64,000 bases of DNA from Ruminococcus sp. (lineage in GTDB: Bacteria > Bacillota > Clostridia > Oscillospirales > Ruminococcaceae): the NCBI GenBank assembly GCA_017525915.1, contig JAFXSC010000012.1, forward strand, positions 62,001 through 126,000, written 5' to 3'. A model generated the notes under the pieces. That model saw nothing but the letters and a program-made list of their open reading frames with translations. It had not been told where the DNA came from and made no database searches. The stretch's first letter is position 1, and each line of letters opens with the position of its first letter. This document shows, piece after piece, positions 9,201 through 56,988 of the stretch. Made by a program: the position numbers and the translations under genes.

Positions 9201-9540
9201 GACAGTGTGTAAATGCACTGTCGCCGATCTTCTCGATAGTATCCGGGAGATTTATCGTCATGAGATAGTTATGATTGCTGAATGCCGCCTCGCCTATCTC
9301 AGTTACCGGGACCCCCTCTACCTCAGCAGGAACGATGATACGGGTCTTTGCAGAGCCCACAGCGAGTACAGCGTGATCGGAATAAATTTCATAGGTGCTG
9401 TCATCGACCGTGAATAATCCGTTCAGATCCGCCGAGTTTGCAGTAAGGAAGAAGTCCGGCGAATTGCGGAAAACTGCCGGAGCGCTGCCGCCGACGATGC
9501 ACAGGGACATAGCCGCGGCGATGATTTTCTTCAGGTTCAT
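6256..9540 (-). CDS. Secreted BspA-type leucine-rich-repeat protein with three dockerin-like regions
   Basis: This is a 1094-residue exported protein. Order seen: signal peptide (about 1-35); BspA/LRR_5 repeats (about 50-370, units such as IGDSAFTHCQHLTKI); Thr linker; dockerin 1 (GDVNCDGKVDTKDAT..., about 405-470); a second dockerin-like pair (GDVNKDGKLNALDV, DVNCDGESSVRDF); a beta-rich region resembling a divergent cohesin (about 560-690); a long Thr/Lys/Pro linker; two small unknown domains; and a C-terminal dockerin (GDIDGNGVINAVDAS and SGDGLVTAVDAS). The start at 9540 is preferred over 9546 because GGAGG lies 7 bp before it. LRR_5 proteins usually mediate adhesion; attachment to a cellulosome through the dockerins is inference. 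The protein has no catalytic domain that I recognise. Confidence 0.88.
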   Translation of the reverse strand: MNLKKIIAAAMSLCIVGGSAPAVFRNSPDFFLTANSADLNGLFTVDDSTYEIYSDHAVLAVGSAKTRIIVPAEVEGVPVTEIGEAAFSNHNYLMTINLPDTIEKIGDSAFTHCQHLTKINIPDSVTYIDNYAFADCAELADVRFGSSIKRIGGYAFHDCKKLTKITLPDSLEGIYSDAFAGTSITELVIPDSVTTLKSGAFEGCEQLTAVTIGSGVTEIPMLCFAADSALTSVTSSGEIYYVGEKAFTNCTALTSISLPGSYVNIGDSAFEFSGLESFDINLYNVGMSAFEDCQFTEITLPATTHSLDYHAFKGNHLTKVTILNPDCDIDNSKWVFCYDGEEPLPTVYGYEYSTAQIYAMDNGFEFVSLGEVPTTSTTTTTTTTSTATTTVTTAVQVSLYGDVNCDGKVDTKDATALMEYLHDSKSNPLSPQGLANADVCDPGDGITAADSDALTKYLSGVISKLPYYTTTSAFDPKKPSTWNWDAGDVNKDGKLNALDVGILLNSLTMPMTTEYVDLSFDVNCDGESSVRDFYGIMLYNLSASVVDGEAEKAGAFTKLPQLADREVENGFDHDAAPGTSVTLAVDIDAESDINYFYFMPEDTDGVSISTVNYYDYEGNQSVCTMGDGQTYCLIASPYGISRILLDCYVSDNAKLGDATVALRNIQLGNILYDASNYSFYKGSDFPDFEFKVNVIGSTTTTTSTTTTTTTTTTTTKKPATTSTTSTTTTTTTKKPTTTSTTTTKKPTTTSTTTTKKPTTTSTTTTKKNTSTTTTTTTTTTTTTITTGYHNQQQLIITGVFDHIDGSYIYMETGSKYLYSRADLSDEANAKLAALKKGDDVELTCTTIDSFARVIVDISKIEVLNTTTSTTSTTTTTTTTTTVTTSTTTSTVTGYEQVMNEKALGTWSIYKRVNNENGAELLFSDDITFELTFNDDFTMDSFMSEGGQNPVMNTFSWTADETAAGGKDKVLIYGDNTEPAVFDLVTMTIADTKSNSVFFLEKKEVTAGKFGDIDGNGVINAVDASKILVKCAELSAPDAPLPSTDVIVKYDISGDGLVTAVDASLLLTYCANLAENENLTLEEFLLARESKKTDK
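7185..7455 (-). repeat. Thr-codon low-complexity linker repeat
   Basis: About 270 bp of near-repetitive threonine codons inside the LRR-dockerin gene encode runs of T broken by repeated K-K-P-T-T-T-S units (at least four). The opposite strand reads as valine-rich open frames, which are artefacts. Such tracts are prone to length variation between strains. Shorter Thr tracts lie near 6890-6950 and 8360-8420. Confidence 0.9.
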
Positions 9541-9574
9541 TTCCATTCCTCCATATAATAAAATTTATATACAC

Positions 9575-36885: not shown

Positions 36886-37167
36886 CCTGTTCTGGTGCGG
36901 CATACCCAAGTGTGTTATTGTTATATATATCAAATAATTACTATATTATACAAAAATTGTCGTTATTTAACAAATCCACAAGTGCTATTTTTCTGTTTTG
37001 TCAATTGAACAGGAAGGTATTTATATGATATAATTAATTTAATTGAAAAGTCCGTCACTCTTCGTCCGGAAACAGCTGCCATCAGCGCATTTCCCCTCTG
37101 AGTTCACCGGGCTTATCACCGTAAATAAGGCATGATCTATTCAAATGCCGGATCAGGAGGTATCAAT
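36886..37167 (+). other. AT-rich intergenic stretch and leader before the five-gene cassette
   Basis: This gap holds no coding frame with a ribosome site. Up to about 37004 it is AT-rich; the promoter follows, then a 130-nt leader that is GC-richer and ends in AGGAGG before the first gene of the cassette. I see no recognised riboswitch. Confidence 0.5.
37005..37034 (+). promoter_or_regulatory. Promoter of the HerA-peptidase-Hsp70 cassette
   Basis: TTGAAC (37005-37010), 18 bp, TATAAT with TGA extension (37029-37034). Confidence 0.7.
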
Positions 37168-39882
37168 ATGGCAATCACGATCAGAAACGATGTTGATATC
37201 AATGTCTCCCCCAAGGACCTTTTCAGAAAGATCAACCTGAAAGATCAGAAGGTAGATATTGATATTGAGATCCCCGACAGTTTTTATCTGAGTCTTCTTG
37301 AAGAATTCTTTGAAAGAGAATATCTCAGCGAGGCTTCTGAGCACACCTTCAATGTATCCGGCATTAAAAAATACAAGAAGATAGAGTGGGTGCAGATCGA
37401 AAGACTTCCGATACACCCCAACCAGAACGCCAATTACGACCTTCTGACAAGATGGCAGGGAGCGCTCTCCTGCCTGCATACATGGGGCTACAAGCTGGTG
37501 TTCCTCCTTCTCAGGTCAAACGGAAAAACAAGGATATTCCTCGGCACCGTCTCCGATAAGCAGAACATCAACAGCACTCTCGCGGTCGAACAGATAAGAG
37601 AAGCCACCTTCGGCTCTATGCCCGGCGTAGGTCTGAGATCACTGACAAAGGACGAGGAACTCGAACTCTCCACGATACTCCGCGGAAGCAGCAATGATGA
37701 TGTGAACTGCCTCACGGAGATAGGTGCTATCACAGGCATCCCCTCCTTCATAAACAGCGAGAACGGTGAGCTTATCCAGACACTCGACCAGCTTGCCTTC
37801 GGCATACGCGACCATCAGGGACAGGACAGGGACTACGCTCTCATGGTCATTGCCGATCCTATCATGGATCAGGAGATATCAAGGATAATCTCAAGATACC
37901 GCTCGATAGGCAGCCAGATACATACTGCCGTCAAGACCACGGTCACTGAGGGCAGCTCTCTCAGTTCAAACAAGGGCTCTGTAATCAGCGGCGGTCTCAG
38001 CATACTCGGCTCCGTTCTCGGAACAACTATCGGCGCATCAGCCGGAAACGCCTTCATCGGCGCAAATATAGGCACTTCCCTTGCGGCAGGCATCGGCAGC
38101 ATTCTCGGCATAAGCACCGGCAAGTCTGCCGGCGGTTCAACAAATGTCAACACCGAATTCCTCGATCAGTTTGCGGAATACGCCGAACAGATGACGCAGA
38201 TGAATATAAAGAGGCTCATGGACGGAAGAAATTTCGGCTTCTGGAATACCGGCGTGTACGTTCTTGGCGCCCAGCCAAAGGATATCACAACTGTTACCGG
38301 TATGCTCAGGTCGATATACTCCGGCGACCAGACCTATCTCGAGCCGATACGCATACACCACTTCAAGAACAAGGATGCTGCAAGACAGATAGTCTGCGGA
38401 CAGTTCGACCTGCTCCCGCTCGTTGATGTTGACCTTAAAAGCGAGCCCGACAGGTTCAGGGAGTACGGCAGCAGCGGCGCGAACTGGCATATCCTCGGTG
38501 AACGCTACCAGTATGTCAGCACTCCGATAAACACAAAGGAGCTCAGTCTCACTACCTCCCTCCCGAGGCAGGATGTTCCCGGACTAAGGTTTGTTAAAAC
38601 TGCGGTTCGCTTTGCGAACAATCCCTCTGTATGCCGCACCGATTCAAGGATAAGCATCGGCAATCTCGTGGATATGGGTATTGTCCACGGCACTACCTAC
38701 GATATAGACGTCAACTCCCTCGTAAGGCACGCTCTCGTTGCAGGCAGCACGGGAAGCGGAAAGTCCACTACCTGCAAGAAGATACTCAACGAGGTGCTCC
38801 GGCGCGATGTACCGATGATGATAATTGAGCCTGCGAAGGACGATTATGTAAGGTGGGCGCTTGAAATGAACAAGGGCCTTCCCCCGGAGAAGCAGTTCAG
38901 GATATTCATGCCGGGAGTTACCGAATTTGAAGGCACAAAGGTCGAGGAGCTGAAGATAAACGGCTACCAGCCTGCCTGCATAAAGGGCGGCACTGCCGAC
39001 CTCCTCCAGCACAGCGAGATATTCGCTACCCTGCTCAATGCCTGTCTCCCCTCCGAGGACGTTATTTCCATACTCATCGAGGAGGTAGTACACGCGACCA
39101 TAACCGAGGCGATGAATGCTTCTGGAATCGACATCGAGACCGAATTCGTTTCGCCGGAGAAGATCAGAAGCTACCCGACCATAGACGATATGCTCGATAC
39201 CGCCAAAAACGTCATGGCGCGCAAGCAGTACGGCAAGGAAAACAAGGACAACCTTACCGAGATACTCACGACCCGTTTCCGTTCACTCAGCCGCGGTATG
39301 CGCGGAAAGATAATGAACGTCCCCAATTCAGTTGATTTCGACGACCTTTTCAGCTCGAACGTCATAGTCAACGTCAGCAGGCTCTCCGGCACTAAGGACA
39401 AGGCGATAATGATGTCCCTGCTGATGAATGCGCTGTATGAATACCGCATATCCAAATACACGTTCGACAACGAATACCGTGCAAGGGCTCAGCGAAACGA
39501 GCTGCTGCACATATGCCTCATCGAGGAGGCTCACAACGTTCTGCTGAAGCCGCATGATTCAGGCCGCGGAGGAAGTCCCCAGAGTGCGGCTGCCGACCTC
39601 TTCGGAAATATGCTCTCTGAGGTAAGAGGCTACGGTCAGGGCTTCATCATAGTAGATCAGGTGCCGACAAGACTTATCGACGATGTTATCAAGAACACCA
39701 ACTACAAGATCGTTCACCGTCTTACTGCACCGGACGACCAGAAGGTCATGGCTTCCTGCATGGCTTTCCGCGATGACCAGCAATACATGATACCTGCACT
39801 CGAAAAAGGAAACGCTATCATCTTCGGCGACGAGGACGATGCGGCAGTGTGGGTAAAGATACCGGCACCAAACAGATCGTAA
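37168..39882 (+). CDS. HerA/FtsK-superfamily ATP-binding protein
   Basis: The 904-residue protein carries a C-terminal HerA-type motor: Walker A GSTGSGKST at 526-534 (Lys532), EPAKDDY just after, Walker B as ICLIEEAHN with Glu786-Glu787, and VDQVPTRLIDDVIKNTNYKIVHRL cut to its key, the sensor-like Gln and a downstream Arg. The N-terminal half (about 1-230) is unknown; residues about 265-325 form a glycine-rich, weakly hydrophobic stretch that could insert in a membrane. HerA-type motors pump DNA or proteins; what this one moves is unknown. AGGAGG precedes the ATG. First gene of the five-gene cassette. Confidence 0.85.
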   Translation: MAITIRNDVDINVSPKDLFRKINLKDQKVDIDIEIPDSFYLSLLEEFFEREYLSEASEHTFNVSGIKKYKKIEWVQIERLPIHPNQNANYDLLTRWQGALSCLHTWGYKLVFLLLRSNGKTRIFLGTVSDKQNINSTLAVEQIREATFGSMPGVGLRSLTKDEELELSTILRGSSNDDVNCLTEIGAITGIPSFINSENGELIQTLDQLAFGIRDHQGQDRDYALMVIADPIMDQEISRIISRYRSIGSQIHTAVKTTVTEGSSLSSNKGSVISGGLSILGSVLGTTIGASAGNAFIGANIGTSLAAGIGSILGISTGKSAGGSTNVNTEFLDQFAEYAEQMTQMNIKRLMDGRNFGFWNTGVYVLGAQPKDITTVTGMLRSIYSGDQTYLEPIRIHHFKNKDAARQIVCGQFDLLPLVDVDLKSEPDRFREYGSSGANWHILGERYQYVSTPINTKELSLTTSLPRQDVPGLRFVKTAVRFANNPSVCRTDSRISIGNLVDMGIVHGTTYDIDVNSLVRHALVAGSTGSGKSTTCKKILNEVLRRDVPMMIIEPAKDDYVRWALEMNKGLPPEKQFRIFMPGVTEFEGTKVEELKINGYQPACIKGGTADLLQHSEIFATLLNACLPSEDVISILIEEVVHATITEAMNASGIDIETEFVSPEKIRSYPTIDDMLDTAKNVMARKQYGKENKDNLTEILTTRFRSLSRGMRGKIMNVPNSVDFDDLFSSNVIVNVSRLSGTKDKAIMMSLLMNALYEYRISKYTFDNEYRARAQRNELLHICLIEEAHNVLLKPHDSGRGGSPQSAAADLFGNMLSEVRGYGQGFIIVDQVPTRLIDDVIKNTNYKIVHRLTAPDDQKVMASCMAFRDDQQYMIPALEKGNAIIFGDEDDAAVWVKIPAPNRS

Positions 39883-39899
39883 AGAAAGAAGGTATTATT

Positions 39900-41048
39900 A
39901 TGACATTTCAGAACCCGGAATTCACATTTTATGAGTACGAGTATACTCCCGAGGAGGATATCAATGACTATTCTCAGGGCTTGTACAGCGACAACGCTTA
40001 CTGGGACACCGTTGAGATAAATATGGAAATGAAACAGATCTATGAGCTGCTCGGAATAGATACCGGCGCCGAAAGGATCACTGCCGCAGAGCTCGACAAC
40101 TTTGATCCCGAATCACAGGAAAACCTCTGCATCTACGGTAATCCCGAATACGCTACGGAAACGTGGGAATGGCAGGAAGGTCCGACCTGTGCACTCCATG
40201 CACAGAGATCGATAATCGAGGAGGTCACAGGCGCAAAAATAGATATCGAGGACATGAAGGCTGTTTCTGAAGCTTACGGCTGGTACGATGATGAAGGCGC
40301 TACTCCGCTGGAATATATGGACAAGATGCTCGATTACTGCGGCATCCCGAATGAGACCTTCTACGGCATGACCTATGAGGATCTGAAGGAAAGCCTTGCA
40401 CAGGGCGACAGGGTCATTGCAGCAGTTGATTCAGATGAATACTGGTACGGCGAATGTGACGATATATTCGGATTTAACGGTGGTGAAGCCCCCGACCACG
40501 CTGTTGAGATCATAGGCATCGACGAATCTGACCCCGAGCACCCGATGGTGATACTCAACGATTCGGGCATACCGAACGGTCAGGGTGTAAGGATACCTGC
40601 CGAGACATTCATGGAGGCATGGGAGGACAGCGAGTTCTACGGCGTAAGAGTACCGGTATACCGTGATTCTCTGCCTTCCGGCGAGCTTGACGATTACTAT
40701 GATGAAGACTTTGACGAGGGCTACGATGAGGACTTCGATGAGGACTTTGACGAGGATTTCAATGATGACATTGAAGATGCTGAGGACGGCAATGAAGGCT
40801 GTGAGGGCACCGAGGACGATGATGAAGACGATGAGGACTTCGACGAGGACGATGAAGACGGCGAAGATGATGACGAGGACGATGAAGATGATGACGACCT
40901 CGACCTTGACTTTGACTTTGATCTCGATTTCACATCAATGTTCTTCCAGAGACTTATGAGCAGCGCACTTGAAAACGGCGACAAGACTGCCTACGAAGAA
41001 GCCAAGGCAGAATGGATAAAGGCTGTTACAGAAGAATATGACTATTGA
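39900..41048 (+). CDS. C39/papain-like cysteine peptidase with a highly acidic C-terminal tail
   Basis: The 382-residue protein has a peptidase core: EWQEGPTCALHAQRS places Gln and the nucleophile Cys97, APDHAVEIIGID gives His200, and VILNDSG gives Asn220/Asp221. Residues about 260-345 are an Asp/Glu tract in near repeats of DEDFDEDF, ending DLDLDFDFDLDF, followed by a short helical tail. No signal peptide is seen, so the peptidase probably acts in the cytoplasm. AAGAAGG lies 8 bp before the ATG, 17 bp after the ATPase gene. Target unknown; the tail may bind a basic partner or inhibit the site. Confidence 0.75.
   Translation: MTFQNPEFTFYEYEYTPEEDINDYSQGLYSDNAYWDTVEINMEMKQIYELLGIDTGAERITAAELDNFDPESQENLCIYGNPEYATETWEWQEGPTCALHAQRSIIEEVTGAKIDIEDMKAVSEAYGWYDDEGATPLEYMDKMLDYCGIPNETFYGMTYEDLKESLAQGDRVIAAVDSDEYWYGECDDIFGFNGGEAPDHAVEIIGIDESDPEHPMVILNDSGIPNGQGVRIPAETFMEAWEDSEFYGVRVPVYRDSLPSGELDDYYDEDFDEGYDEDFDEDFDEDFNDDIEDAEDGNEGCEGTEDDDEDDEDFDEDDEDGEDDDEDDEDDDDLDLDFDFDLDFTSMFFQRLMSSALENGDKTAYEEAKAEWIKAVTEEYDY
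40685..40935 (+). repeat. Asp/Glu-codon low-complexity tract
   Basis: Near-repeating GAT/GAC/GAG codons encode the acidic tail of the C39-like peptidase. The opposite strand reads as a serine-rich frame, an artefact. Confidence 0.9.
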
Positions 41049-41081
41049 TTATGATATATCTATACCGAAAGGGGTTTTGTT

Positions 41082-41732
41082 ATGAGACAGGATTTTTCTA
41101 TTGAGAAGTTTCTCAGGAAGATGAAAAGCGATAAATTCATTGCAGGCATAGGTATGCCTATGGAATACGCTCCGGGACTTCCCGTTATCCGCAGGATAAA
41201 CGATACCGACTGTATCACCGTTCCGTTCCTTCGCAGAAGAAGGGCAAAGAAAACAGTCCGGGAGGACGGCAGCCGCTTCACGGTCATTGAGACCTACCCT
41301 ATCCGCTATGCCGTTACCTATGCGCTCAGACCCATAAACCTTCCCGAGCTCAAGGGCAGCGCTGCTATCGTCATGTCAGGCGACCCGGAATTCCTTGACA
41401 GCACCATAACCGAGGGCAGACCCATCGCCTTCGAGGACCTCAGCTTCCGCAGCGATTATACTGTTCCCGGAAGCGATAAGAAATTCGACCCGCGCAAGCC
41501 TGTCGGCGTATTCGCCCCCTGTGAAGATTACGAGAAAAAGCTCGGCGATTTCTACAAGCTGTTCGATGAGGCTGTAAATATCAGGCTCTATGAGAAGACT
41601 ATCGACGGTGCGCTCGAAAACAGACTTATCAACAGGCTCTCGGAACTCCTGAACTGCGACAAGGCCCTCAGGCCCTTCTACGCCCTGCTCGATAACGGTC
41701 ATCACGGAAAGAGGATAGCTGAACAGAAATAA
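41082..41732 (+). CDS. Unknown protein of the five-gene cassette
   Basis: The 216-residue soluble protein is not recognised. It starts with a basic helical stretch (FSIEKFLRKMKSDKF) followed by a conserved-looking PMEYAPGLPVIRRINDTDC region; a basic patch FLRRRRAKKTVR lies near 50 and a proline-rich segment near 140. No membrane span. AAAGGGG lies 7 bp before the ATG; it begins 33 bp after the peptidase gene. The basic patch would suit contact with the peptidase's acidic tail, which is only a guess. Confidence 0.75.
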   Translation: MRQDFSIEKFLRKMKSDKFIAGIGMPMEYAPGLPVIRRINDTDCITVPFLRRRRAKKTVREDGSRFTVIETYPIRYAVTYALRPINLPELKGSAAIVMSGDPEFLDSTITEGRPIAFEDLSFRSDYTVPGSDKKFDPRKPVGVFAPCEDYEKKLGDFYKLFDEAVNIRLYEKTIDGALENRLINRLSELLNCDKALRPFYALLDNGHHGKRIAEQK

Positions 41733-41865
41733 TACCATGACCGAACAGACATTAATTATATCTGCCGCTGAAAGTTCCGGCGGTTAATGGTCCTGCACTC
41801 TGAGCTGTACATATTGTAACAGAGCAAGTATATCAACGCACCACATCATAACAGGAGGAATAGAT

Positions 41866-44211
41866 ATGCCGGAAAAAAGAATTATAGGTATTGATTTCGG
41901 TACGAGCACATCTGTTGTCAGAGCCAAGAATTACAACGTTACCGGCGAGGGCGAAAACGAAAAATGGATGTCACAGGAACGTGACGTCACTCTTGCAAGA
42001 AGCATCACCTTCAACAACGGTGCAGTAATGGTCCCTACTCTCGTCCAGAAGGGCGAGGGCAAGGTGAATTACGGTTATGACGCTGCCATAAACAGGAAGG
42101 GTCAGACCATCTACCAGAATTTCAAGATAGACCTTGAAGGCGAGAATTCCGAGGAAGCCCGTGCGCTTACCGCCGAATTCATAAAATACCTCTACGAGCA
42201 GTACAAGGACCAGCGCGACGGCGGTCATATCGGCAATGCAGAAGCCGAAGAAAAGACTATCGTCAGCTATCCCGTAAAATGGAGCGAGGCAACAAGGCAG
42301 TTCATGATACAGGCTGCTGTTGATGCCGGTTTCAGGAACGTTGAAGGCATGGACGAGGCTAAGGCTGCGATAACCGCAGTCATCACACTCAGTCAGGGAA
42401 TGCTCGAGAAGAAGAACTATATCCAGCCCGGACAGTCCGCCAACATCATGCTCATAGACATGGGCGCCGGTACTACCGATATTGTGATAAGCCGCTATAC
42501 CCACGGCGAGGAGCCGAATAACGAGATACTCTGCACATGGCCGCAGGGCGGTGAGATACTTTTCGGCGGCAGGGAGCTCGACGAGATATTAAGCAATTAT
42601 ATAATCGAAAAGGTGCCGGACGATGTGAAGCCTGTCTTTGCAAAAAGAGTAAAGCTGAACGACTACAAGGCATGGAAGGAGAATAACGTTTCCGGCTCAC
42701 TCAGGCGCAATGAGAGCGTTACTACCTACGCAGCCGGTGACAATGTGCTTGATATCCTCGATTCGGAAATGGAGCCGTTCGAGCTCAACAGGGCTGAATT
42801 CGAGCGTATCGCAGGCGATTATCTCGCCAAGTTCGCTGCTCTTGTCAACGGAAGTCTGGACGAGTGCATAAAGACAGGTCAGATAGCTGACAAGAACGAT
42901 ATCGACCTCATAATACTCACAGGCGGTCACAGCCAGTGGTATTTCGTCCATGAGATGCTCAGCGGCGCACCGATCGGCGTTCCGGACGATAAGGCGGTCT
43001 CTCTCGGCAAGATCATGGCTGACCCGGGCAGGATAATCGACATTGCCAAGCCGCAGGAGACCGTTGCCCTCGGTCTTGCATACAGCAAGCTCCAGATAAG
43101 AGTATACAATTCCGGTCAGAACAGAGCTGCGGTGACGGCTGATGCTCCTTCGCCTGCACCTTTCCCGGTGCCTGAGACTTCCGGTGTCACTGCCGATGAG
43201 GAAGAGGAAGTCTTCTTCGCCGATGAGCCGTTCGACCCGGAGACCTATCAGCTCCCCGAATTATCGCGGTATGACAGATATATCCCGTATGATATGTACG
43301 CTGTACCAGTGAGTGAATACACAGCTGCCATCGAGAAATGCAATGTGCGGCTCGGCAAGTCAGTGGAAAAGTACAATAGCACACTTTCGGCATACAGCCT
43401 TTACAGTCCGGAACTGAAGCCTACTTCAAGGCCTGATATACTTGTGAACGTACTCGGCATCCCGAACGGCGAGACCATACTTTTCCTCGGTGATTCCTCA
43501 TGGTTCCAGAGAGGCGCGAACGGTATCGCCATAACCACATACGGCATCCGCTACAAGGAGTCCTTCGGCACACTCCACGCGCTTTCGTGGGCAGAGCTTA
43601 TTACAAGGTCGATGATAAAGCAGAAGCACCTGCTCTCCGGAGGCGAGCGCATCGCGGAGGCAAATGTTGACGGTATCGCCGACTACCTCGAAAACCTCTT
43701 CCGTGAACTCAGAAAAACACAGGCATATCAGAAAATCAACAGCATCTACAGGGATTCCTTCATCAATCAGCTCATTCTTCACGAAAAGATCGAGAAGTCT
43801 GTCACTAAGAAGTACGGAAAGTACGACGGCACGCCCTGCGTTCACCCGAAATTCTTCGCTCAGAAGGGCAATATGCAAAACTACATCTACACTCACTCAA
43901 AGGCCGACAAGAGGGAGTTCTTCGTATCCGATGCCGGTGTTTATCTCTGCGAGCTTTTCAGCGATGATACTATGAAGTTCAGATACAGTCCTCTGAGCAA
44001 GATGCGTCTGAACTATGCTACGGTAAAAGGCGCCGAGAGCGATCCTCTTACCGACCTGATGTCCTGCATAACCGACGCTTCCAAAGACCACATCATAGGC
44101 GAAGTTTCGCTGCTTTCATCGTATCTGGTGAATGAGATCATCACACGCAGAAAGCTCATCGAGCAGATAATAGCCTCCTCATACCTCAAAGGAGATGAAC
44201 GTGACAATTGA
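41866..44211 (+). CDS. Hsp70-family ATPase with a non-canonical C-terminal half
   Basis: The 781-residue protein has an actin-like Hsp70 nucleotide domain (about 1-405): IGIDFGTSTS at 7-16 (Asp10), the connect motif with EAKAAITAV, phosphate-2 IDMGAGTTDIV with Asp198, and the adenosine motif LTGGHSQW at 352-359. After an acidic/proline linker (about 420-460) comes a 320-residue C-terminal region (DRYIPYDMYAVPVSEY..., TRRKLIEQIIASSYL) that does not look like the DnaK substrate-binding domain. No dnaJ or grpE is near. AGGAGG lies 8 bp before the ATG. Confidence 0.83.
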   Translation: MPEKRIIGIDFGTSTSVVRAKNYNVTGEGENEKWMSQERDVTLARSITFNNGAVMVPTLVQKGEGKVNYGYDAAINRKGQTIYQNFKIDLEGENSEEARALTAEFIKYLYEQYKDQRDGGHIGNAEAEEKTIVSYPVKWSEATRQFMIQAAVDAGFRNVEGMDEAKAAITAVITLSQGMLEKKNYIQPGQSANIMLIDMGAGTTDIVISRYTHGEEPNNEILCTWPQGGEILFGGRELDEILSNYIIEKVPDDVKPVFAKRVKLNDYKAWKENNVSGSLRRNESVTTYAAGDNVLDILDSEMEPFELNRAEFERIAGDYLAKFAALVNGSLDECIKTGQIADKNDIDLIILTGGHSQWYFVHEMLSGAPIGVPDDKAVSLGKIMADPGRIIDIAKPQETVALGLAYSKLQIRVYNSGQNRAAVTADAPSPAPFPVPETSGVTADEEEEVFFADEPFDPETYQLPELSRYDRYIPYDMYAVPVSEYTAAIEKCNVRLGKSVEKYNSTLSAYSLYSPELKPTSRPDILVNVLGIPNGETILFLGDSSWFQRGANGIAITTYGIRYKESFGTLHALSWAELITRSMIKQKHLLSGGERIAEANVDGIADYLENLFRELRKTQAYQKINSIYRDSFINQLILHEKIEKSVTKKYGKYDGTPCVHPKFFAQKGNMQNYIYTHSKADKREFFVSDAGVYLCELFSDDTMKFRYSPLSKMRLNYATVKGAESDPLTDLMSCITDASKDHIIGEVSLLSSYLVNEIITRRKLIEQIIASSYLKGDERDN

Positions 44212-44717
44212 GCATTTTCTCTAAATTTAAAGCATTTTTCTCCGGCAGGAAGGGACTTGACAAGCCCTCTGAAAGGAAAAAATTCATCGCTCTCTGGACA
44301 AATGAATTAGCTGCTGCTCCCGAAGTATTCACGGGACTGTATAACGGTCTGCTCGACGTTTCAAACGGCAAGCTCAAGCGTCAAGCAACTCTGTTCAAGG
44401 AGTGGAGCGAGCGTGTTGACAACCGTCTTGACAGCGACGCAAAGGCGTCGTCCGTGAAGTATATCGTCCCGATGATCGGCAGCAGTGAGCCTGAAAAGGT
44501 CAGTACGCTTGCCGGTGCGCTTCTGGAAGCCGCCGCGGCTGCAGGTATCATATATGAACAGGGCAGCGAGGTAGTGATAAACGAGACTAATCTCGACCAC
44601 TATACCCCGATGAGCTCAGACGAAGCGCTGAGTGCAGGAGACGTTGTCACTGTCATAAAACCGGCATGGTATTTCAGCGGAAGGGTCATCGAGAACGGTT
44701 TTGCCGATCTGAAATAG
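44208..44717 (+). CDS. Small unknown protein, TTG start overlapping the Hsp70 stop
   Basis: The 169-residue protein begins at TTG within the TTGA overlap with the Hsp70 stop codon; the frame is closed just upstream and no nearby ATG exists, so translation depends on the Hsp70 gene (AAAGGAG lies about 13 bp before). It starts with a short amphipathic, basic segment (SIFSKFKAFFSGRKG), then helical sequence, an alanine-rich helix near 105-117, and a C-terminal beta part (DVVTVIKPAWYFSGRVIENG) that could fold like GrpE's beta domain; I would not rest on that. Last gene of the cassette. Confidence 0.7.
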   Translation: MSIFSKFKAFFSGRKGLDKPSERKKFIALWTNELAAAPEVFTGLYNGLLDVSNGKLKRQATLFKEWSERVDNRLDSDAKASSVKYIVPMIGSSEPEKVSTLAGALLEAAAAAGIIYEQGSEVVINETNLDHYTPMSSDEALSAGDVVTVIKPAWYFSGRVIENGFADLK

Positions 44718-47425: not shown

Positions 47426-50400
47426 ATGAAGAAGACAAAAATTGGTGCAGCCATAACCGCAGCTATGTGTTTCTCAACCGTTTTCGCATCAATGCCTGCA
47501 TATTTTTCAAACACTTATGCAGCAACGATCGTAGAGAACGAGTTTGAAGCCAACTTCGACGGATGGTACAACACAAATACCGACACTGTATTTAATGCAG
47601 TAAACGGCGGCGGATTCGGCGGTTCAAGAGGTATGAAACTCTCCGGAAGAACATCTCCCGAGGACGGTGTTGCTTCCTCAAAGGGACTCTATCTCTGGGG
47701 CGGCACAAAGTACAATTACAGCTTCGACGTTTTCAGTGAGTACGATGAGACCTTCCACATTTCCCTTCTCTACATTGATGAGGAAACACAGGAGGAAACT
47801 ACTGTCGAGCTCATTAACGAAGAAGTTAAGGGCGGCGAGTGGGCTACCCTCACAAAGAGCTTCAAGGCTCCCAAGGGAAGCTGCGAGTTCCTTATTACTA
47901 TCAGAACAGACAGCACGAACGACTTCAGCTTCGATAATGTTCGCATTACCGAAAAGCGCGATGCAAACGTTACCTACGCTGCTCAGTCCCAGAAGGGTCT
48001 GAAGGACGAGTTCGGCGAATACTTCCGCGTTGGTAATATCTTCAACGGCGGTACTATCAACAATTCAGCAATTCAGGGCATTATCCTCAAGGATCACAAT
48101 GCTATCGAGTGTGAGAACGAGACAAAGCCTGACGCTACTCTCGTTCAGAGCGGCTCTTCAAATACCAATATCAAGGTAAAATCCAGCAGCTTCGCAGCTA
48201 TCGCGGACTTCTGTGTCAAGAACAACCTCAGTTTCCGCGGACATACTCTTGTATGGCACAGCCAGACTCCTCAGTGGTTCTTCAAGACCAACTTCCAGGA
48301 CGGCGGTCAGTGGTGCGACAAGGCTACGATGAATCAGCGCCTTGAGAGCTACATCAAGAATATGTTCGATCTGTACAAGACGCAGTATCCTCAGCTCGAC
48401 CTCTACGCATACGATGTATGTAACGAGTGTATCTCTGACGGCGGCAACGGAGGTCCGAGATCAGGCGGCTACGGCAACGGAGCTTCTCCCTGGGTACAGA
48501 TCTACGGCAACAACGACTTCATCGAGCAGGCATTCACCTTCGCAAGGCAGTACGCTCCTGAGACCTGTAAGCTCTTCTACAACGACTACAACGAGTACGC
48601 AGGCGGCAAGAAGAGCAGCATCATCAACTCCATCCTCAAGCCCCTCAAGGCTAAGGGAGTTCTCGACGGTATGGGTATGCAGTCACATATGGACTGCTCA
48701 GACAAAAACGCATGGGGCTCCACCGAGGAATATATCAAGGCTATGGACGAGTACCTCAGCCTCGGCATCGAGGTCCAGGTAACCGAGCTTGATCTTTCCC
48801 GCGACAACAACAAGTATACAGACGCTCAGCAGGCTACAAAGTACAAGGCTATATTCCAGCACTGCGTTGACGTAAACAAGAACAACACATACCCCGGCAA
48901 GATCACTCTTGTTCAGGTATGGGGTCCTAACGACAGCAACTCCTGGGTTCGCATAAAGGACAGAGATGAGAACAAGCCCAACTATCCGCTCCTCTACAAC
49001 GGAAGCAATCAGCCTAAGTCAGCTTATACGGCTATAACAAGCATTATCCCCACAAGCGAGTGGACTACCGGTATCCCCTACACAGGTCCCGGAAGCACAG
49101 GCTTCGTTCCCCTTCCTCCCAAACTCATTGAGCCCGATGAGAACGGCTACTACTTCCACCACACATTTGAGGGTGACACCTTCAATTGGTCAGGACGCGG
49201 CGCCGCTTCCGTAAAGGTAAGCTCAGACACAGCTTATGCAGGAACACAGTCACTCTACTGCTCAGGCAGAACAGCTTCTTGGAACGGCGCAAGCTACTCC
49301 ATCAGCACAAATCCCTTCGAGCCCGGCAAGACATTCAGCTTCTCAGCTCTCGCCTGCTCGACATCTCCTACACTTGACACTGTAAAGTTCAAGTTCACTC
49401 TCCAGTACACAGGTTCTGACAACGAGGCTCATTACAGCGAGATCGCAAGCGGCACTGCTCCGAGCGGTTCCTGGATTCAGCTTGCAAATCAGAGCTATAC
49501 AATACCGGAAGATGCTTCCAATCTTCTGATCTATGTTGAGACCGACGATGAGTCTACCGGCGACTTCTACGTTGACGAAGTTATCGGTGCTGTTGAAGGC
49601 ACAAAGATCGCTGGTCCGAAGGCTCCCGTTGTACGCACACTCAACATCGGTGATGTTACATTCGACGGCAAGATCAACGTATTCGACGTTATCGCTATCC
49701 GCAAGGGCCTCAAGAACGGTATAAGCGACGTGCTCGCAGCAAGAGCTGCCGACGTTGACCAGAACGGTTCTCTTGAAGTTGCTGACCTCGTTCTCGAGCA
49801 GAACTTCGTGATGGGCAGGATCAAGGAATTCCCCGAGCCTCCTATAACAAAGCCCAATGTTAGCGAATTCGTGACCGCATTCAGCGGTATAACTGCTGCT
49901 TCCACATGGAAGAAGGACGGCGAGAACAACCCTTGCACAACTCAGCGTTTCGGCGCTGACCCCGGCTGGCTCGTTTATGACGGAAGACTTTACCTCTACA
50001 CGACAGCTGATGAATTCGAGTATCAGAACAACGGCAATATGCAGGAGAATACCTATGCTTCAGGCTATATCAACTGCATCTCAACAGCAGATATGGTAAA
50101 CTGGACCGACCACGGTCAGATCCCTGTTGCAAAGACAAGAACTTCCGGCGCTATCGCTTCATGGGCTAATAACGCATGGGCTCCTGATGCTGCTTGGAAG
50201 AATATCGGCGGACAGGATAAGTTCTTCCTTTACTTCGCAAACAACGGTTCAGGTATCGGCGTTATCACAGCAGATGACCCGACATTCACCAAGAATGTAA
50301 AGGATCCTCTCGGTCACGAGCTCATTTCAAGAAGCACCCCCAACAGCAACGTAACATGGCTCTTCGATCCCGGCGTTTACTATGATCCTGTTACTGATAC

Positions 50401-51319
50401 AGGTATAATCGCATACGGCGGCGGTGTTCCGAACGGAAAGGCTGCCAAGACAGAGCAGGGACGTATTGCTAAGCTCGGCGATGACATGATCTCAATCGTA
50501 GGTACACCTATTGATCCCGGCACACCTTACCTCTTTGAGGACTCAAGCATGATCAAGCTCGGCGACACATGGTATTACTCATTCTGCCACAACTGGAACG
50601 TTCCCGGCGGTGCAAGCGAAAACGGCAATTCATTCAGCAACGCTGATATCGGTTACATGACATCAACAAATCCTCTCAAGGATTACAAGTATCAGGGCGT
50701 TGTATTCAAGAATACAGGCTCACAGAGAATTGATAACGGCGGTAACAACCACCACTCTATCATCTCATTCAAGGATAGACTCTATGTTGCTTACCACAGC
50801 CGCCAGCAGGCTATCCGCATGACACAGGCAAACGGCTATAAGTTCTATAATACAAAGGGCGAGCTTACTGACAGCAAGGACGGTAACTACCGTTCAACTC
50901 AGATCAATGAAGCTACCCTCAGCAACGGAAAGATCACCTGCAACGGCGACATGAAGGGCTGCACACAGATTGAAAAGCTCGATGTTTATTCAAAGGTTCA
51001 GGCTGAGACAATGTCCAACCAGTCCAAGAACATTTCAGTAAGCGGTCGCGGTGACACAACTGTAAAGGGAAAGAAGGGCGACTGGATCAAGGTTTCCGGC
51101 GCAGACCTCTCAAAGGGAGTTAAGTCCATAACAGCCAAGGGCTCAGGCGGCAAGCTCAAGTTCACCACCGGCTCAGTAGACGGCGACGTTATCGGATACA
51201 TCGACCTCTCAAGCGGCGCTGAGAGCACTCTCGGTTCTGTATCTTCTCCCTCTGGCACAAAGGACATCTACATCGAATTCAGCGACGACGTAACACTGGA
51301 TTACTGGTTCTTTTCTTAA
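47426..51319 (+). CDS. Cellulosomal xylan-degrading enzyme: CBM22-GH10-CBM22-dockerin-GH43-CBM6
   Basis: The 1297-residue secreted enzyme begins with a signal peptide (about 1-32). A CBM22 (about 35-178) precedes a GH10 xylanase (about 180-545) with HTLVWHSQTPQWF, acid/base Glu334 in DVCNE and nucleophile Glu454 in VTELDLS. A second CBM22 (about 570-735), a central dockerin (GDVTFDGKINVFDV and DVDQNGSLEVADL), a GH43 domain (about 815-1180; base Asp region FGADPGWLVYDGRLYLY, AWAPDAAW) and a C-terminal CBM6 (VQAETMSNQ...) follow. GH10 cuts the xylan backbone; GH43 would remove xylose or arabinose. A strong AAGGAG precedes the ATG. Confidence 0.96.
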   Translation: MKKTKIGAAITAAMCFSTVFASMPAYFSNTYAATIVENEFEANFDGWYNTNTDTVFNAVNGGGFGGSRGMKLSGRTSPEDGVASSKGLYLWGGTKYNYSFDVFSEYDETFHISLLYIDEETQEETTVELINEEVKGGEWATLTKSFKAPKGSCEFLITIRTDSTNDFSFDNVRITEKRDANVTYAAQSQKGLKDEFGEYFRVGNIFNGGTINNSAIQGIILKDHNAIECENETKPDATLVQSGSSNTNIKVKSSSFAAIADFCVKNNLSFRGHTLVWHSQTPQWFFKTNFQDGGQWCDKATMNQRLESYIKNMFDLYKTQYPQLDLYAYDVCNECISDGGNGGPRSGGYGNGASPWVQIYGNNDFIEQAFTFARQYAPETCKLFYNDYNEYAGGKKSSIINSILKPLKAKGVLDGMGMQSHMDCSDKNAWGSTEEYIKAMDEYLSLGIEVQVTELDLSRDNNKYTDAQQATKYKAIFQHCVDVNKNNTYPGKITLVQVWGPNDSNSWVRIKDRDENKPNYPLLYNGSNQPKSAYTAITSIIPTSEWTTGIPYTGPGSTGFVPLPPKLIEPDENGYYFHHTFEGDTFNWSGRGAASVKVSSDTAYAGTQSLYCSGRTASWNGASYSISTNPFEPGKTFSFSALACSTSPTLDTVKFKFTLQYTGSDNEAHYSEIASGTAPSGSWIQLANQSYTIPEDASNLLIYVETDDESTGDFYVDEVIGAVEGTKIAGPKAPVVRTLNIGDVTFDGKINVFDVIAIRKGLKNGISDVLAARAADVDQNGSLEVADLVLEQNFVMGRIKEFPEPPITKPNVSEFVTAFSGITAASTWKKDGENNPCTTQRFGADPGWLVYDGRLYLYTTADEFEYQNNGNMQENTYASGYINCISTADMVNWTDHGQIPVAKTRTSGAIASWANNAWAPDAAWKNIGGQDKFFLYFANNGSGIGVITADDPTFTKNVKDPLGHELISRSTPNSNVTWLFDPGVYYDPVTDTGIIAYGGGVPNGKAAKTEQGRIAKLGDDMISIVGTPIDPGTPYLFEDSSMIKLGDTWYYSFCHNWNVPGGASENGNSFSNADIGYMTSTNPLKDYKYQGVVFKNTGSQRIDNGGNNHHSIISFKDRLYVAYHSRQQAIRMTQANGYKFYNTKGELTDSKDGNYRSTQINEATLSNGKITCNGDMKGCTQIEKLDVYSKVQAETMSNQSKNISVSGRGDTTVKGKKGDWIKVSGADLSKGVKSITAKGSGGKLKFTTGSVDGDVIGYIDLSSGAESTLGSVSSPSGTKDIYIEFSDDVTLDYWFFS

Positions 51320-53724: not shown

Positions 53725-56700
53725 ATGAAGCTCAAAGGTTTGAAACGTTTCGCAGCAGCTGCGGCTGCACTGACCATCATGGCTGCTTCCATGCCTGTCA
53801 TGAACACCGTTACTTTTGCCGCAGGAAACATCATCAAAAACGGTGAATTCGCAACCGGTACATCCGGCTGGGGCACCTACAAGGAGTCCGGCGGTAAGTG
53901 TACACTTTCGACCGAAAACGGCGCGCTTGCTCTCAAGGTATCCGATGTCGGCGAAAAGAACTATTCTGTTCAGGCATTCTACGATATCATACCGCTCTAC
54001 CAGAACGGCGTTTACCGTCTGAAGTACGATATCTCATCTACTGTTGACCGCTATGTTGAAGGAATGATTCAGCAGAACGGCGGCAAGTACACCGCTTATG
54101 TATGGGACGGTCTTGAACTGACCTCAACTCCGCAGACTGTGAACCACGTTTTCACTATGAAATATGACACGGATATCATGTCCAAGCTCGTTTTCAACTG
54201 CGGTATCCAGGAAGAACATGAGGGAGTTCTTCCGGAGCACACTATCTATATCGACAATGTTTCTCTTGAACTCATCGACGACAGTGCTGTTGACTACTCG
54301 TCCACACAGACCAAGGAGAACAATATCAATATCAACCAGGTAGGCTACACTCCCGACAGCAAGAAGATCGCTGTATTCCGCGGTGTCACCAACCAGACAC
54401 AGTTCAAGGTGATCAACGCTGACACAGGCGCAGTTGCTTATACAGGCAATCTCAGCAGCTCTATCTCGAACAGCTCCGCCAACGAGACCAACTGGCAGGG
54501 CGACTTCTCGACAGTTACCGTTCCCGGCAAATACTACATCGAGTGCGAAGGTCTGGAGAAGTCCTATACTTTCGAGATCGGCAGCAACGTTTACAATAAC
54601 CTTCTCACCGACTCAATCAAGATGCTCTACCTCCAGCGCTGCGGCGTTCAGGTAAGCGATCCCGACTTCGGTCACGCTGCCTGCCACAATACTCTCGCTA
54701 CTGTTTACGGCACAGACCGCAAGATAGACGTTTCCGGCGGCTGGCACGATGCAGGCGACTACGGCAGATATGTAGTACCGGCTGCAAAGACTATCGCTGA
54801 CCTCTTCTATGCTTATCAGGAGAATCCTGCCGCTTATGGCGACAGCACAGGTATCCCCGAGAGCGGCAACGGCACTCCCGATATCCTCGACGAAGCACGC
54901 TTCGAGCTTGAGTGGATGCTCAAGATGCAGGATACCAACGGCGGCGTATTCCACAAGGTAAGCTGCAAGACCTTCCCGGGCTATGTTGCTCCTACCGCGG
55001 AAACAGGCGAGCTTTTCGTTACTCCCGTTTCTTCAACTGCAACTGCTGATTTCTGCGCTTCTATGGCGCTCGCATATGAATTCTTCAAGCAGTACGATCC
55101 TGCATTTGCAAACACCTGCAAGAGTGCTGCTGAAAAGGCTTGGGCTTGGCTCGAGTCCAACCCGAACTACGTTCTCGTTAATCCCGAGGACATCGTTACC
55201 GGTGACTACGCTGATTTCTACAAGAACGACAAGGACGAGAGAAGCTGGGCAGCTGCTCAGATGTACCGCATGACAGGCGAGACTAAGTACCTCAGCTCCA
55301 TTACCACTGTCAACTCCGAGCTCGGCTGGTCTGACATGGGCGGTTACGGCGCTGTTGCTCTCCTCACAATGCCCAATGCTGACAAATCCTCAGCAAGCTA
55401 CCAGAAAGCTTCCGATGCCGTTATCTCAGCAGCAGATACCTACCTCAAGACAGTTGACAGCTCTGCATACGGCGTTTCTATCACAAAGTATGACTGGGGC
55501 AGCAATATGAACGTTGCTGACAGAGGACTTATCCTTTCCCTCGCTTATAAGCTCACAGGTCAGGAGAAGTACCTCACAGCAGCTCAGAAGCAGCTCGACT
55601 ACCTCCTCGGCACTAATCCCCTCGGCACAAGCTTCGTTACCGGATACGGCACAGTATCTCCTCAGAATCCTCACCACCGTCCTTCTATGGCTGCCGGCAA
55701 GGCAATGAAGGGTATGCTCGTAGGCGGTGTTGACCAGAGCCTCGAGGACAGTGCTGCCAAGGCTTACTGCGCTGACGCTCCGGCTGCAAAGTGCTGGATA
55801 GACAACTCCGAGAGCTATTCCACAAACGAGATCACTATCTACTGGAATTCTCCTCTCACATACCTCATCTCCTCTACTGCTTCAAGCAACAGCAGCATTA
55901 TTGATCCTCCCATAGGTATCCTCTGGGGCGACGCTAACTGCGACGATCAGGTAAATATGGCTGACGCCGTACTCATCATGCAGAGCATAGGCAATCCTGA
56001 TAAGTACCACCTTACTGACAAGGGCGCGGCTAACGGAGACGTTAACGAGAACGGCAACGGCATCACCAACAAGGACGCTCTTGCTATCCAGAAGTATAAG
56101 CTCAATCTTATCCCCTCTCTCCCTGAGTCATACTCAACAAATCCTCCTACTACTTCCACAACAACAACTCAGACAACTACTACAACTACGCAGACCACAA
56201 CATCTACAACAACCACAACAACTACTACATCTCCCGTAAACGATGAATTCGTTGCAGGCTTCCCCGTAAAGGGTACTCCCATGAACAGCAACGCTACTAT
56301 GGTATCCAATTTCCACGCCGGTCAGGCAGGCGACTTCTTCGCTTCCGACGGCTGGACAAACGGCAGCGTTTTCGATAACTGGTGGTACAAGAAGAATACC
56401 GGCATCAAGGACGGCTATATGTACCTCACGATAGATCAGGACTGGGACAACCACAGATACGATGAAGACAAGAGACAGTATTCCGGCGGTGAGTACCGTA
56501 CAAATGAGTTCTATCACTACGGCTACTATGAGTGCTCAATGCAGGCTATCAAGAACGACGGCGTTGTTTCTTCGTTCTTCACCTACACAGGTCCGAGCGA
56601 TGTAGTTAACGGTCAGAAGAATCCCTGGGACGAGATCGACATCGAGATCCTCGGTAAGGATACTACAAAGATGCAGATCAACTACTACCGCAACGGACAG

Positions 56701-56988
56701 GGCGGTCACGAAGTAATGATCGACCTCGGATTTGATTCATCTCTCGAATTCCACACCTACGGATTTGACTGGCAGCCCGACCACATCACATGGTACGTTG
56801 ACGGCAATCCGGTACATACAATGAACGGTGATGTGCCGAAGACCCCCAGCAAGATCATGATGAACGCATGGCCCGGCGTAAGCGATTCCAGCGTAAAGGA
56901 CAATACTGTTGCATGGCTCAAGCCCTACGACGGCAAGACTCCTCTTACAGCACGTTATCTCTGGGCAACATACACTAAGAGCAACTAA
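53725..56988 (+). CDS. Cellulosomal glucanase: CBM4-Ig-GH9-dockerin-Thr linker-GH16
   Basis: The 1087-residue secreted enzyme has a signal peptide (about 1-32), a CBM4-like module (about 33-190), an Ig-like domain (about 200-290), and a GH9 domain (about 295-720) with the catalytic Asp pair Asp342/Asp345 in WHDAGDYGRY and acid Glu702 in STNEITIYW. Then come a dockerin (GDANCDDQVNMADAV and DVNENGNGITNKDAL), a Thr linker (about 806-838) and a GH16 domain with Glu970-Ile-Asp972-Ile-Glu974 in WDEIDIEILG. GH9 attacks cellulose; GH16 with this motif usually is a lichenase for mixed-linkage beta-glucan. Fusion of both around a dockerin is notable. Confidence 0.95.
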   Translation: MKLKGLKRFAAAAAALTIMAASMPVMNTVTFAAGNIIKNGEFATGTSGWGTYKESGGKCTLSTENGALALKVSDVGEKNYSVQAFYDIIPLYQNGVYRLKYDISSTVDRYVEGMIQQNGGKYTAYVWDGLELTSTPQTVNHVFTMKYDTDIMSKLVFNCGIQEEHEGVLPEHTIYIDNVSLELIDDSAVDYSSTQTKENNININQVGYTPDSKKIAVFRGVTNQTQFKVINADTGAVAYTGNLSSSISNSSANETNWQGDFSTVTVPGKYYIECEGLEKSYTFEIGSNVYNNLLTDSIKMLYLQRCGVQVSDPDFGHAACHNTLATVYGTDRKIDVSGGWHDAGDYGRYVVPAAKTIADLFYAYQENPAAYGDSTGIPESGNGTPDILDEARFELEWMLKMQDTNGGVFHKVSCKTFPGYVAPTAETGELFVTPVSSTATADFCASMALAYEFFKQYDPAFANTCKSAAEKAWAWLESNPNYVLVNPEDIVTGDYADFYKNDKDERSWAAAQMYRMTGETKYLSSITTVNSELGWSDMGGYGAVALLTMPNADKSSASYQKASDAVISAADTYLKTVDSSAYGVSITKYDWGSNMNVADRGLILSLAYKLTGQEKYLTAAQKQLDYLLGTNPLGTSFVTGYGTVSPQNPHHRPSMAAGKAMKGMLVGGVDQSLEDSAAKAYCADAPAAKCWIDNSESYSTNEITIYWNSPLTYLISSTASSNSSIIDPPIGILWGDANCDDQVNMADAVLIMQSIGNPDKYHLTDKGAANGDVNENGNGITNKDALAIQKYKLNLIPSLPESYSTNPPTTSTTTTQTTTTTTQTTTSTTTTTTTTSPVNDEFVAGFPVKGTPMNSNATMVSNFHAGQAGDFFASDGWTNGSVFDNWWYKKNTGIKDGYMYLTIDQDWDNHRYDEDKRQYSGGEYRTNEFYHYGYYECSMQAIKNDGVVSSFFTYTGPSDVVNGQKNPWDEIDIEILGKDTTKMQINYYRNGQGGHEVMIDLGFDSSLEFHTYGFDWQPDHITWYVDGNPVHTMNGDVPKTPSKIMMNAWPGVSDSSVKDNTVAWLKPYDGKTPLTARYLWATYTKSN

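What the first reader, a model, noticed from the sequence alone, without database searches (positions are those of the whole stretch)
37168..44717. Five-gene HerA ATPase, acidic-tailed cysteine peptidase and Hsp70-fold cassette of unknown function
Seen: five plus-strand genes (37168, 39900, 41082, 41866, 44208) with gaps of 17, 33 and 133 bp and one 4-bp overlap, behind one promoter and ending before a tRNA. Known: HerA/FtsK motors move DNA or protein, C39/papain folds cut peptide bonds, Hsp70s remodel proteins. Inference: a machine that unfolds or moves a substrate, cleaves it, and is regulated by a dedicated Hsp70. I know of no described defence, secretion or stress system with this composition. 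The absence of a toxin, nuclease, DnaJ, GrpE or pilus gene argues against the usual explanations.
Basis: partly seen in the sequence, partly recalled or inferred. Interest (0 to 1): 0.82.

Follow-up and report, generated by a model that had tools for sequence, protein, structure and literature searches.

The report
HerA-Hsp70 operon with swappable peptidase cargo
Five neighbouring genes in a gut-type clostridium encode a conserved but apparently undescribed bacterial system, a HerA-type motor paired with an Hsp70-like ATPase, that seems built to handle interchangeable protein-cutting effectors, much as bacterial toxin weapons swap their warheads.

Summary
In detail: five plus-strand genes lie where stated, behind a promoter-like site, before a tRNA-Gly. 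They are a real, recurrent system. Among 82 loci with the ATPase (A), in five phyla and mostly metagenome-assembled, all 54 with enough flank carry an Hsp70-like gene on the same strand within 5 kb. The other window genes are conserved families too: B (C39-like cysteine peptidase), C, D (Hsp70-like), E. B is followed by C in 39 of 40 cases. Elsewhere B-C is replaced by a zinc peptidase with its own unrelated small partner (18 of 18). The module kinds B, f6, f20 and f8 never mix (0 of 82). In related branches, including a second locus in this genome, the next gene after the ATPase carries a known toxin domain in 9 of 12 tested; SUKH immunity was found in both neighbours tested. One such locus also carries the zinc peptidase pair. 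So the peptidase is better read as swappable effector than as part of a degradation machine. Best model: a membrane-linked HerA/Hsp70 motor that loads or exports effector B, with C as its dedicated partner (immunity or chaperone). Export is not shown. Nine searches of an open-licence paper library gave no description.

The parts
37005..37034 (+). Promoter-like site (TTGAAC-18-TATAAT with TG before the -10)
   Evidence: consensus match only
37168..39882 (+). A: HerA/VirB4-like motor-type ATPase (904 aa; alternative start 37132)
   Evidence: HerA structures found by profile; it was the search bait, so its presence in 82 of 82 loci is by construction
37970..38110 (+). Hydrophobic, glycine-rich hairpin-like segment inside A (approximate limits)
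   Evidence: 47 of 84 A ORFs have a segment at hydropathy 1.6 or more; the window copy does not reach it (peaks 1.54 and 1.48)
38743..38769 (+). Walker A of A (GSTGSGKST)
   Evidence: four sequences: G526, G529-S533 invariant
39508..39534 (+). Walker B region of A (HICLIEEAH)
   Evidence: E786, E787, A788, H789 invariant
39900..41048 (+). B: C39/papain-like cysteine peptidase with acidic stretch; predicted effector/cargo
40188..40190 (+). Predicted nucleophile Cys97 of B (His200 at 40497-40499, Asn220 at 40557-40559)
   Evidence: columns at least 90% conserved in 30 sequences
40644..40934 (+). Acidic stretch of B (60% D/E over 97 residues)
40935..41048 (+). C-terminal hairpin-like tail of B, alike a separate small protein (f27) in 9 other loci, where it follows C in 7
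   Evidence: window B also matches the f27 profile
41082..41732 (+). C: dedicated partner of B (immunity protein/inhibitor or loading chaperone, inferred)
   Evidence: B followed by C in 39 of 40 cases; model with pLDDT 86, pTM 0.82; no Pfam family in more than 2 of 38 members
41866..44211 (+). D: Hsp70/actin-like ATPase, Hsp70 nucleotide-binding half plus variable C-terminal part
44208..44717 (+). E: conserved accessory protein; 30 of 40 family members have an N-terminal hydrophobic segment, the window copy has none at the cut-off

Best explanation
The cassette is one of a family of HerA-centred effector systems. Shown: genes for a HerA-type motor (A) and an Hsp70-like ATPase (D) form a constant neighbourhood, often with E, coupled to one exchangeable module kind at a time, each with its own small partner gene (here peptidase B with C). 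Inferred: A forms a hexameric ring held at the membrane by its glycine-rich segment and by E; D, an Hsp70-type ATP switch with a variable C-terminal domain, gates or delivers cargo to A; B is a proteolytic effector (toxin) recognised through its tail and pushed through or released by A; C is made with B to neutralise it or keep it export-ready. The likeliest purpose is conflict with other bacteria, as suggested by related branches where the same motor type stands beside toxin domains and, twice as tested, SUKH immunity genes.
For: Constant neighbourhood: Hsp70-like gene within 5 kb on the same strand in 54 of 54 loci with full flanks and 74 of 82 overall, the other 8 on short flanks. Dedicated pairs: B-C 39 of 40, zincin f6-f12 18 of 18, median gaps 1 and 4 bp. 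Exclusive module kinds: B 38, f6 16, f8 15, f20 6, none 7, two kinds 0 of 82. Small partners not alike: 28 family pairs tried, ten best printed, highest probability 2.3% (E with f15); C-f12 0.7%, f12-f28 0.4%. Cargo proteins mostly lack an N-terminal hydrophobic segment (B 0 of 40, f20 0 of 7, f6 2 of 18) while E has one in 30 of 40. Related branches: first gene after A passes the Pfam cut-off for a toxin domain in 9 of 12 tested (WHH, GH-E, LHH, Endonuclea_NS_2, Gln_amidase), is below it in 2, none in 1; SUKH in 2 of 2 tested. L026 bridges both: Dynamin_N GTPase and the f6-f12 pair at one HerA locus; its zincin, its neighbouring HNH-like protein (by eye; no Pfam match) and the L029 WHH nuclease share a 29-residue N-terminal motif. 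Cargo class needs at least 6 changes on the ATPase tree, zincin f6 at least 3.
Against: No experiment. No outer channel, needle or pilus gene was noticed. Window E lacks the N-terminal segment and window A misses the hydropathy cut-off. C resembles no known immunity family and could not be fold-searched. The B family finds no convincing solved relative by sequence (best a designed repeat protein, E 0.0028; cathepsin L, E 0.33). At least two second-copy B proteins have lost the catalytic Cys (L050, L073). f8 is not a recognisable peptidase; 7 loci have no recognised module. Nine of 21 related-branch loci were not scanned for a toxin, and in several of these (L147, L148, L150, L152, L154) the next gene does not look like one by eye. 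Those branches are not one clade, and L027, L033, L034 are long, unsure branches. A short N-terminal pattern in cargo was chosen after looking, held in 2 of 4 later sequences, and is absent from 15 of 15 related-branch candidates.
Confidence: 0.5

Rival explanations
1. An intracellular defence system: D and A sense an invader (phage or plasmid) at the membrane and release or activate the peptidase B, which damages the host cell or the invader; C keeps B off until then.
For: Patchy, rare distribution: D in 2 of 197 family genomes including the window's; strong A matches in 5 of 387, 2 of 384 and 1 of 242 genomes of other groups, each count including the centre genome chosen for having it. HerA models of defence systems match A in part. 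D C-terminal domains vary like sensors. No export channel noticed.
Against: Related loci carry SUKH immunity genes (2 of 2 tested) and toxin domains. PADLOC has no model matching B, C or E. Linkage to defence islands was not tested.
Confidence: 0.27
2. A peptide maturation and export system: B (C39-like) and the zinc peptidases cut a precursor, and A pumps out the product.
For: C39 peptidases classically trim leaders in exporters (recalled family knowledge). In Chloroflexota the f11 proteins share an N-terminal region, while the last 150 residues of 13 long copies fall into three groups; 3 of 9 scanned match a ribosomal-peptide family below its cut-off. L022 has what I read by eye as a radical-SAM/SPASM enzyme next to the zincin.
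Against: No constant precursor gene was seen in Bacillota or Bacteroidota; peptidase folds swap while the motor stays; toxin domains follow the motor in related branches.
Confidence: 0.12
3. A proteolysis machine: A unfolds clients, B degrades them, D is the chaperone.
For: Motor ATPase, peptidase and Hsp70-like protein in one gene row.
Against: B swaps with unrelated folds and, at the family level, with nucleases; window D matches only the nucleotide-binding half of Hsp70, and 2 of 84 Hsp70-like ORFs look like DnaK by motif; at least two B copies lack the catalytic Cys.
Confidence: 0.07
4. A DNA-transfer or DNA-processing module (conjugation, CedD-like import).
For: The C-terminal part of A resembles the DNA translocase CedD (E 2.1e-22 but 79.5 bits against a cut-off of 600).
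Against: No recurrent relaxase or pilus family stood out among the neighbour families (read by eye); the modules are protein-acting enzymes.
Confidence: 0.04

Closest known systems
EccE3-like/VirB4-like HerA ATPase in extended Type III-A CoCoNuT operons (PMC11090510; section 10 read whole, otherwise passages)
   Same: HerA-superfamily ATPase with a VirB4-like motor, an extra N-terminal domain and an insertion of variable length; a role in secretion or conjugation suggested there
   Different: Described beside duplicated VWA genes of a restriction system, with a small helical protein; no Hsp70 plus peptidase pair is described for it in that section. I did not compare sequences
Polymorphic toxin systems, including T7SS-exported ones (PMC3482391, passages read)
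   Same: Swappable effector domains with dedicated partner genes; HerA/FtsK motor; related branches show toxin domains and SUKH immunity
   Different: Hsp70-like partner, no WXG/LXG match in the five proteins, peptidase effectors, unknown channel
GTPase-centred conflict systems with HSP70 (PMC7159879, passages read)
   Same: Hsp70-like proteins (some without the peptide-binding part) and GTPases coupled to variable effectors
   Different: No HerA motor in the passages read; partners there include DnaJ, GrpE and tubulin
HerA/FtsK capture and BREX-related capture systems (PMC12839542 and PMC10853773, passages read)
   Same: HerA motor at the heart of a conflict system
   Different: DNA-directed; no Hsp70 and no peptidase effector in the passages read
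Peptidase_C39_2 family
   Same: 23 of 30 B members match at E up to 0.1, with Q, C, H, N/D conserved
   Different: B is a stand-alone soluble protein with an N-terminal tail, not fused to an ABC exporter

Membership tests
HerA superfamily ATPase (for A) | Walker A/B and HerA-type C-terminal half | tested here: met
HerA superfamily ATPase (for A) | Hexameric ring, translocation | not testable with these tools
   The structure job for the N-terminal half never ran
Hsp70/DnaK chaperone (for D) | Nucleotide-binding domain with phosphate motifs | tested here: met
   of 84 Hsp70-like ORFs a loose phosphate-2 pattern fits 77 and a stricter phosphate-1 pattern 46
Hsp70/DnaK chaperone (for D) | Substrate-binding domain | tested here: not met
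   Window D matches HSP70 only over residues 129-366 (profile 134-347 of 599); no structure was made, so a diverged domain is not excluded
Peptidase_C39_2 (for B) | Family-level match and catalytic Q, C, H, N/D | tested here: met
   23 of 30 members at E up to 0.1, residues; window B alone gives no match
Polymorphic toxin system | Exchangeable effector domains beside a constant delivery part | tested here: met
   Exchange shown; that the constant part delivers is inferred
Polymorphic toxin system | Known toxin and immunity families in this very cassette | tested here: not met
   B, C and E match no toxin or immunity family at cut-off; met only in related branches
Polymorphic toxin system | Effector leaves the cell and harms non-immune neighbours | not testable with these tools
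   -
Type VII secretion system | WXG100/LXG cargo and an EssC-type multi-domain FtsK ATPase | tested here: not met
   No such match in the five proteins; A has one DUF87 stretch
CoCoNuT Type III-A extension | VWA and McrB/McrC-type genes around the HerA gene | tested here: inconclusive
   None in the five cassette proteins or the 10 other window proteins scanned; remaining neighbours not scanned
Known anti-phage system (PADLOC) | Matches for the whole set | tested here: not met
   Only partial HerA/mad8 matches for A and one weak match for D

The most novel reading that the evidence does not exclude
A new class of protein-delivery machine: a HerA/VirB4-like ring that carries its own membrane hairpin and is paired with an NTP switch (Hsp70-like here, dynamin-like GTPase in related branches), recognises short N-terminal tags on unrelated cargo enzymes, and delivers exchangeable proteases or nucleases, in at least five phyla of one- and two-membrane bacteria.
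Probability: 0.3. Interest if true: 0.93.

Novelty: new variant of a known kind. Interest (0 to 1): 0.78.

Why it matters
If the reading holds, gut and environmental bacteria carry a thinly but widely spread conflict system that PADLOC does not list as a set, with an Hsp70-type switch feeding a HerA motor and peptidases as warheads. It would tie HerA motors to protein cargo, and it makes a clear bench question: does C neutralise B, and does B need A and D to leave the cell?

Tried and rejected
Degradation-machine reading: not kept as main model because peptidase folds swap and toxin domains follow the motor in related branches. Ubiquitin-like E (ThiS E 0.037 for the window copy): not among the 25 families (of 59) listed for the E family. 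Mobile-element insertion next to the tRNA: no evidence found; metG is followed by other DNA in two same-genus genomes and one same-family genome, so no clean empty site was seen. Plasmid or phage carriage: one weak Nocardia plasmid match for D, two unannotated 'bacteriophage' contigs for A (one opened, no annotation), two viral-collection loci. A common origin of C, f12 and f28: no profile likeness. Shared N-terminal cargo pattern: suggestive in the Hsp70 branch, post hoc, absent in related branches. The L029 N-terminus (62 aa) has no match in plasmids. Fold comparison of C and structures of A and E: not obtained.
Full report
What is there. Searches confirm the five genes, their spacing and the tRNA-Gly. 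A is a HerA-type ATPase (DUF87 E 4.5e-10; HerA structures by profile), D has the Hsp70 nucleotide-binding half, and B, C and E match no Pfam family at cut-off. A promoter-like site precedes A and a terminator-like hairpin follows the upstream gene, both of a kind also found by chance. GC content of the cassette region (0.48-0.53) lies within that of its surroundings (0.43-0.56). Other large genes of the window (mutS, mutL, Hsp90, GH9, GH10, dockerin/LRR, EAL among the 10 scanned) look chromosomal and fit a cellulose-degrading clostridium; that last step is inference.

It is a conserved system. D was searched in 197 genomes of the same family: 2 have it at E 1e-10, the window genome and G021, and in G021 it sits next to A (48% identical) and an E relative (26% over 126 residues). 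A scan of GTDB contigs with four A proteins found 157 relatives, of which the tool kept the best 80. I added the window, L005, L021 and L022 and dropped L046 and L049, the same contigs as L021 and L005, leaving 82 loci. Many records are metagenome-assembled genomes, so single odd placements may be binning errors. Phyla: Bacillota, Bacteroidota, Cyanobacteriota, Chloroflexota and one Pseudomonadota locus, L091. Profile searches of all ORFs and counts: Hsp70-like gene on the same strand within 5 kb in 74 of 82; in 54 of 54 with at least 3 kb upstream and 6 kb downstream; the 8 misses lie on short flanks. B in 38 loci, C in 38, E in 40. B is followed by C in 39 of 40 cases (exception L048); 2 of 41 C genes have no B (L041 second copy, L053 at a contig end). 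Against 30 whole genomes, C matched 22 places in 20 genomes; by coordinates compared by hand, 21 are the cassettes and 1 is a weak extra. So C is not scattered. I did not run that test for A, B, D or E.

The peptidase is exchangeable. Loci without B-C carry a zinc peptidase f6 (HExxH invariant in 17 of 17 aligned) followed by f12 in 18 of 18 cases, or f20, in Cyanobacteriota with f28, or f8 and the f11 proteins in Chloroflexota. No locus of 82 has two of B, f6, f20 and f8; 7 have none. f8 is not a recognisable peptidase and may be something else. C, f12 and f28 show no profile likeness. On the ATPase tree cargo class needs at least 6 changes and zincin f6 at least 3, in a quick tree of 103 rows and a careful one of 87 rows from which 16 long-branch or near-duplicate rows were dropped. 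Loci without a recognised module were left out of the cargo-class count.

Related branches suggest what the slot is for. 21 loci with more distant A proteins were fetched (13 of them 23-28% identical to window A). They are not one clade, and L027, L033 and L034 sit on long, unsure branches. The window genome has one, L028: a dynamin-like GTPase, HerA and a WHH nuclease. Of 12 first-downstream proteins scanned, 9 pass the Pfam cut-off for a toxin domain: WHH/Colicin-DNase in L024, L028, L029, L151; GH-E in L030; Endonuclea_NS_2 in L031; Gln_amidase in L034; LHH in L035, L155. Two are below cut-off (TNT in L032, ART-PolyVal in L033) and one has none (L026). The other 9 loci were not scanned for this, and in L147, L148, L150, L152 and L154 the next gene does not look like a toxin by eye. 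SUKH immunity was found in both neighbours tested (L024, L035). Dynamin_N was found in 3 of 4 upstream proteins scanned; the fourth has Sel1 repeats. L032 has a DnaK-like and a weak DnaJ-like neighbour instead. L026 is the bridge: GTPase, HerA, an HNH-like gene (by eye) and the f6-f12 pair, with a 29-residue N-terminal motif common to its zincin, its HNH-like protein and the L029 nuclease and found in no other ORF of the set searched.

How it may work. Inference: A is a ring motor at the membrane. Its hydrophobic segment passes the cut-off in 47 of 84 ORFs, and GxxxG spacing is 2.8 per segment against 1.9 shuffled in 78 proteins; the window copy is weaker. E has an N-terminal hydrophobic segment in 30 of 40, not in the window copy. 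D is an ATP switch with a changing C-terminal part: RCC1 and FHA in 4 of 53 each, LRR_5 and Sel1 in 3 each, zinc ribbons in single members, and no named domain in many. Of 84 Hsp70-like ORFs only L044 and L106 look like true DnaK by motif, and the L106 one is on the other strand, outside the cassette. B would be the effector and C its dedicated partner. C folds into an N-terminal helix, an antiparallel sheet and a C-terminal helical bundle (pLDDT 86, pTM 0.82), but no fold search could be run. Window B ends in a hairpin-like tail that in 9 other loci is a separate small protein, directly after C in 7, a fusion that hints at a loading or targeting piece. Catalytic motifs by a simple pattern are present in 34 of 40 B ORFs; some misses come from the pattern or a cut-off end, but L050 and L073 second copies have lost the Cys in the alignment.

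A possible cargo tag. Many B, f19 and f20 proteins begin with a short pattern (hydrophobic, E, any, hydrophobic, acidic or polar) in residues 2-18: B 17 of 31 (2.5 in shuffles), f19 4 of 4, f20 3 of 6, f6 4 of 17, f11 2 of 19, f27 0 of 6; A 2 of 60, C 1 of 29, D 0 of 34, E 1 of 36, f12 0 of 16, f5 0 of 18, f8 0 of 18; other neighbours 16 of 498 (9.0 in shuffles, so slightly raised too) (near-identical starts removed). I chose the pattern after seeing the sequences, and moved four B starts to an internal Met. In four later zincins it held in 2, one of them from a locus close to L113 and so not independent. It is absent from 15 of 15 related-branch candidates. This is a lead, not a result.

What is known. 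Nine searches of the open-licence PMC library listed no paper that I recognised as describing a HerA-Hsp70-peptidase cassette; subscription papers and preprints are not covered. Six papers were looked into: passages of PMC3482391, PMC12839542, PMC7159879, PMC4158269 and PMC10853773, and passages plus one section of PMC11090510. The nearest text is on an EccE3-like/VirB4-like HerA ATPase in extended CoCoNuT operons, where a secretion or conjugation role was suggested, with no Hsp70 or peptidase partner in the section read.

Noticed in passing
L028 (own genome, contig C40, about 75978-83102): Second HerA system in the same genome: dynamin-like GTPase, HerA, WHH/Colicin-DNase nuclease and a 147-aa neighbour that by eye resembles the one beside the L029 nuclease.
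   Followed up: partly
L089-L111 (Chloroflexota loci): f11: up to five proteins per locus with a shared N-terminal region and differing C-termini; 3 of 9 scanned match a ribosomal-peptide family below its cut-off.
   Followed up: partly
L036, L037, L039, L043, L045, L051, L052, L057, L075 and others: A protein that by eye is a degenerate response regulator with a LytTR-like end (f5) is the next recognised gene after C in 17 cases, 12 of them within 200 bp, suggesting signal-controlled expression.
   Followed up: no
L039, L040, L042, L044, L072, L074-L076, L092, L103: A family that by eye is ADP-ribosylglycohydrolase-like (f14) lies near the cassette in 10 loci.
   Followed up: no
L050:12321-13106, L073:2779-3435: Second B-C pairs whose B has lost the catalytic Cys, possible pseudo-enzymes kept beside other copies.
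   Followed up: no
window 6259-9546 (-), 47426-51316 (+), 53725-56985 (+): Dockerin/BspA-LRR protein and GH10 and GH9-GH16 glycosidases: a cellulosome-type gut or rumen host (inferred).
   Followed up: no
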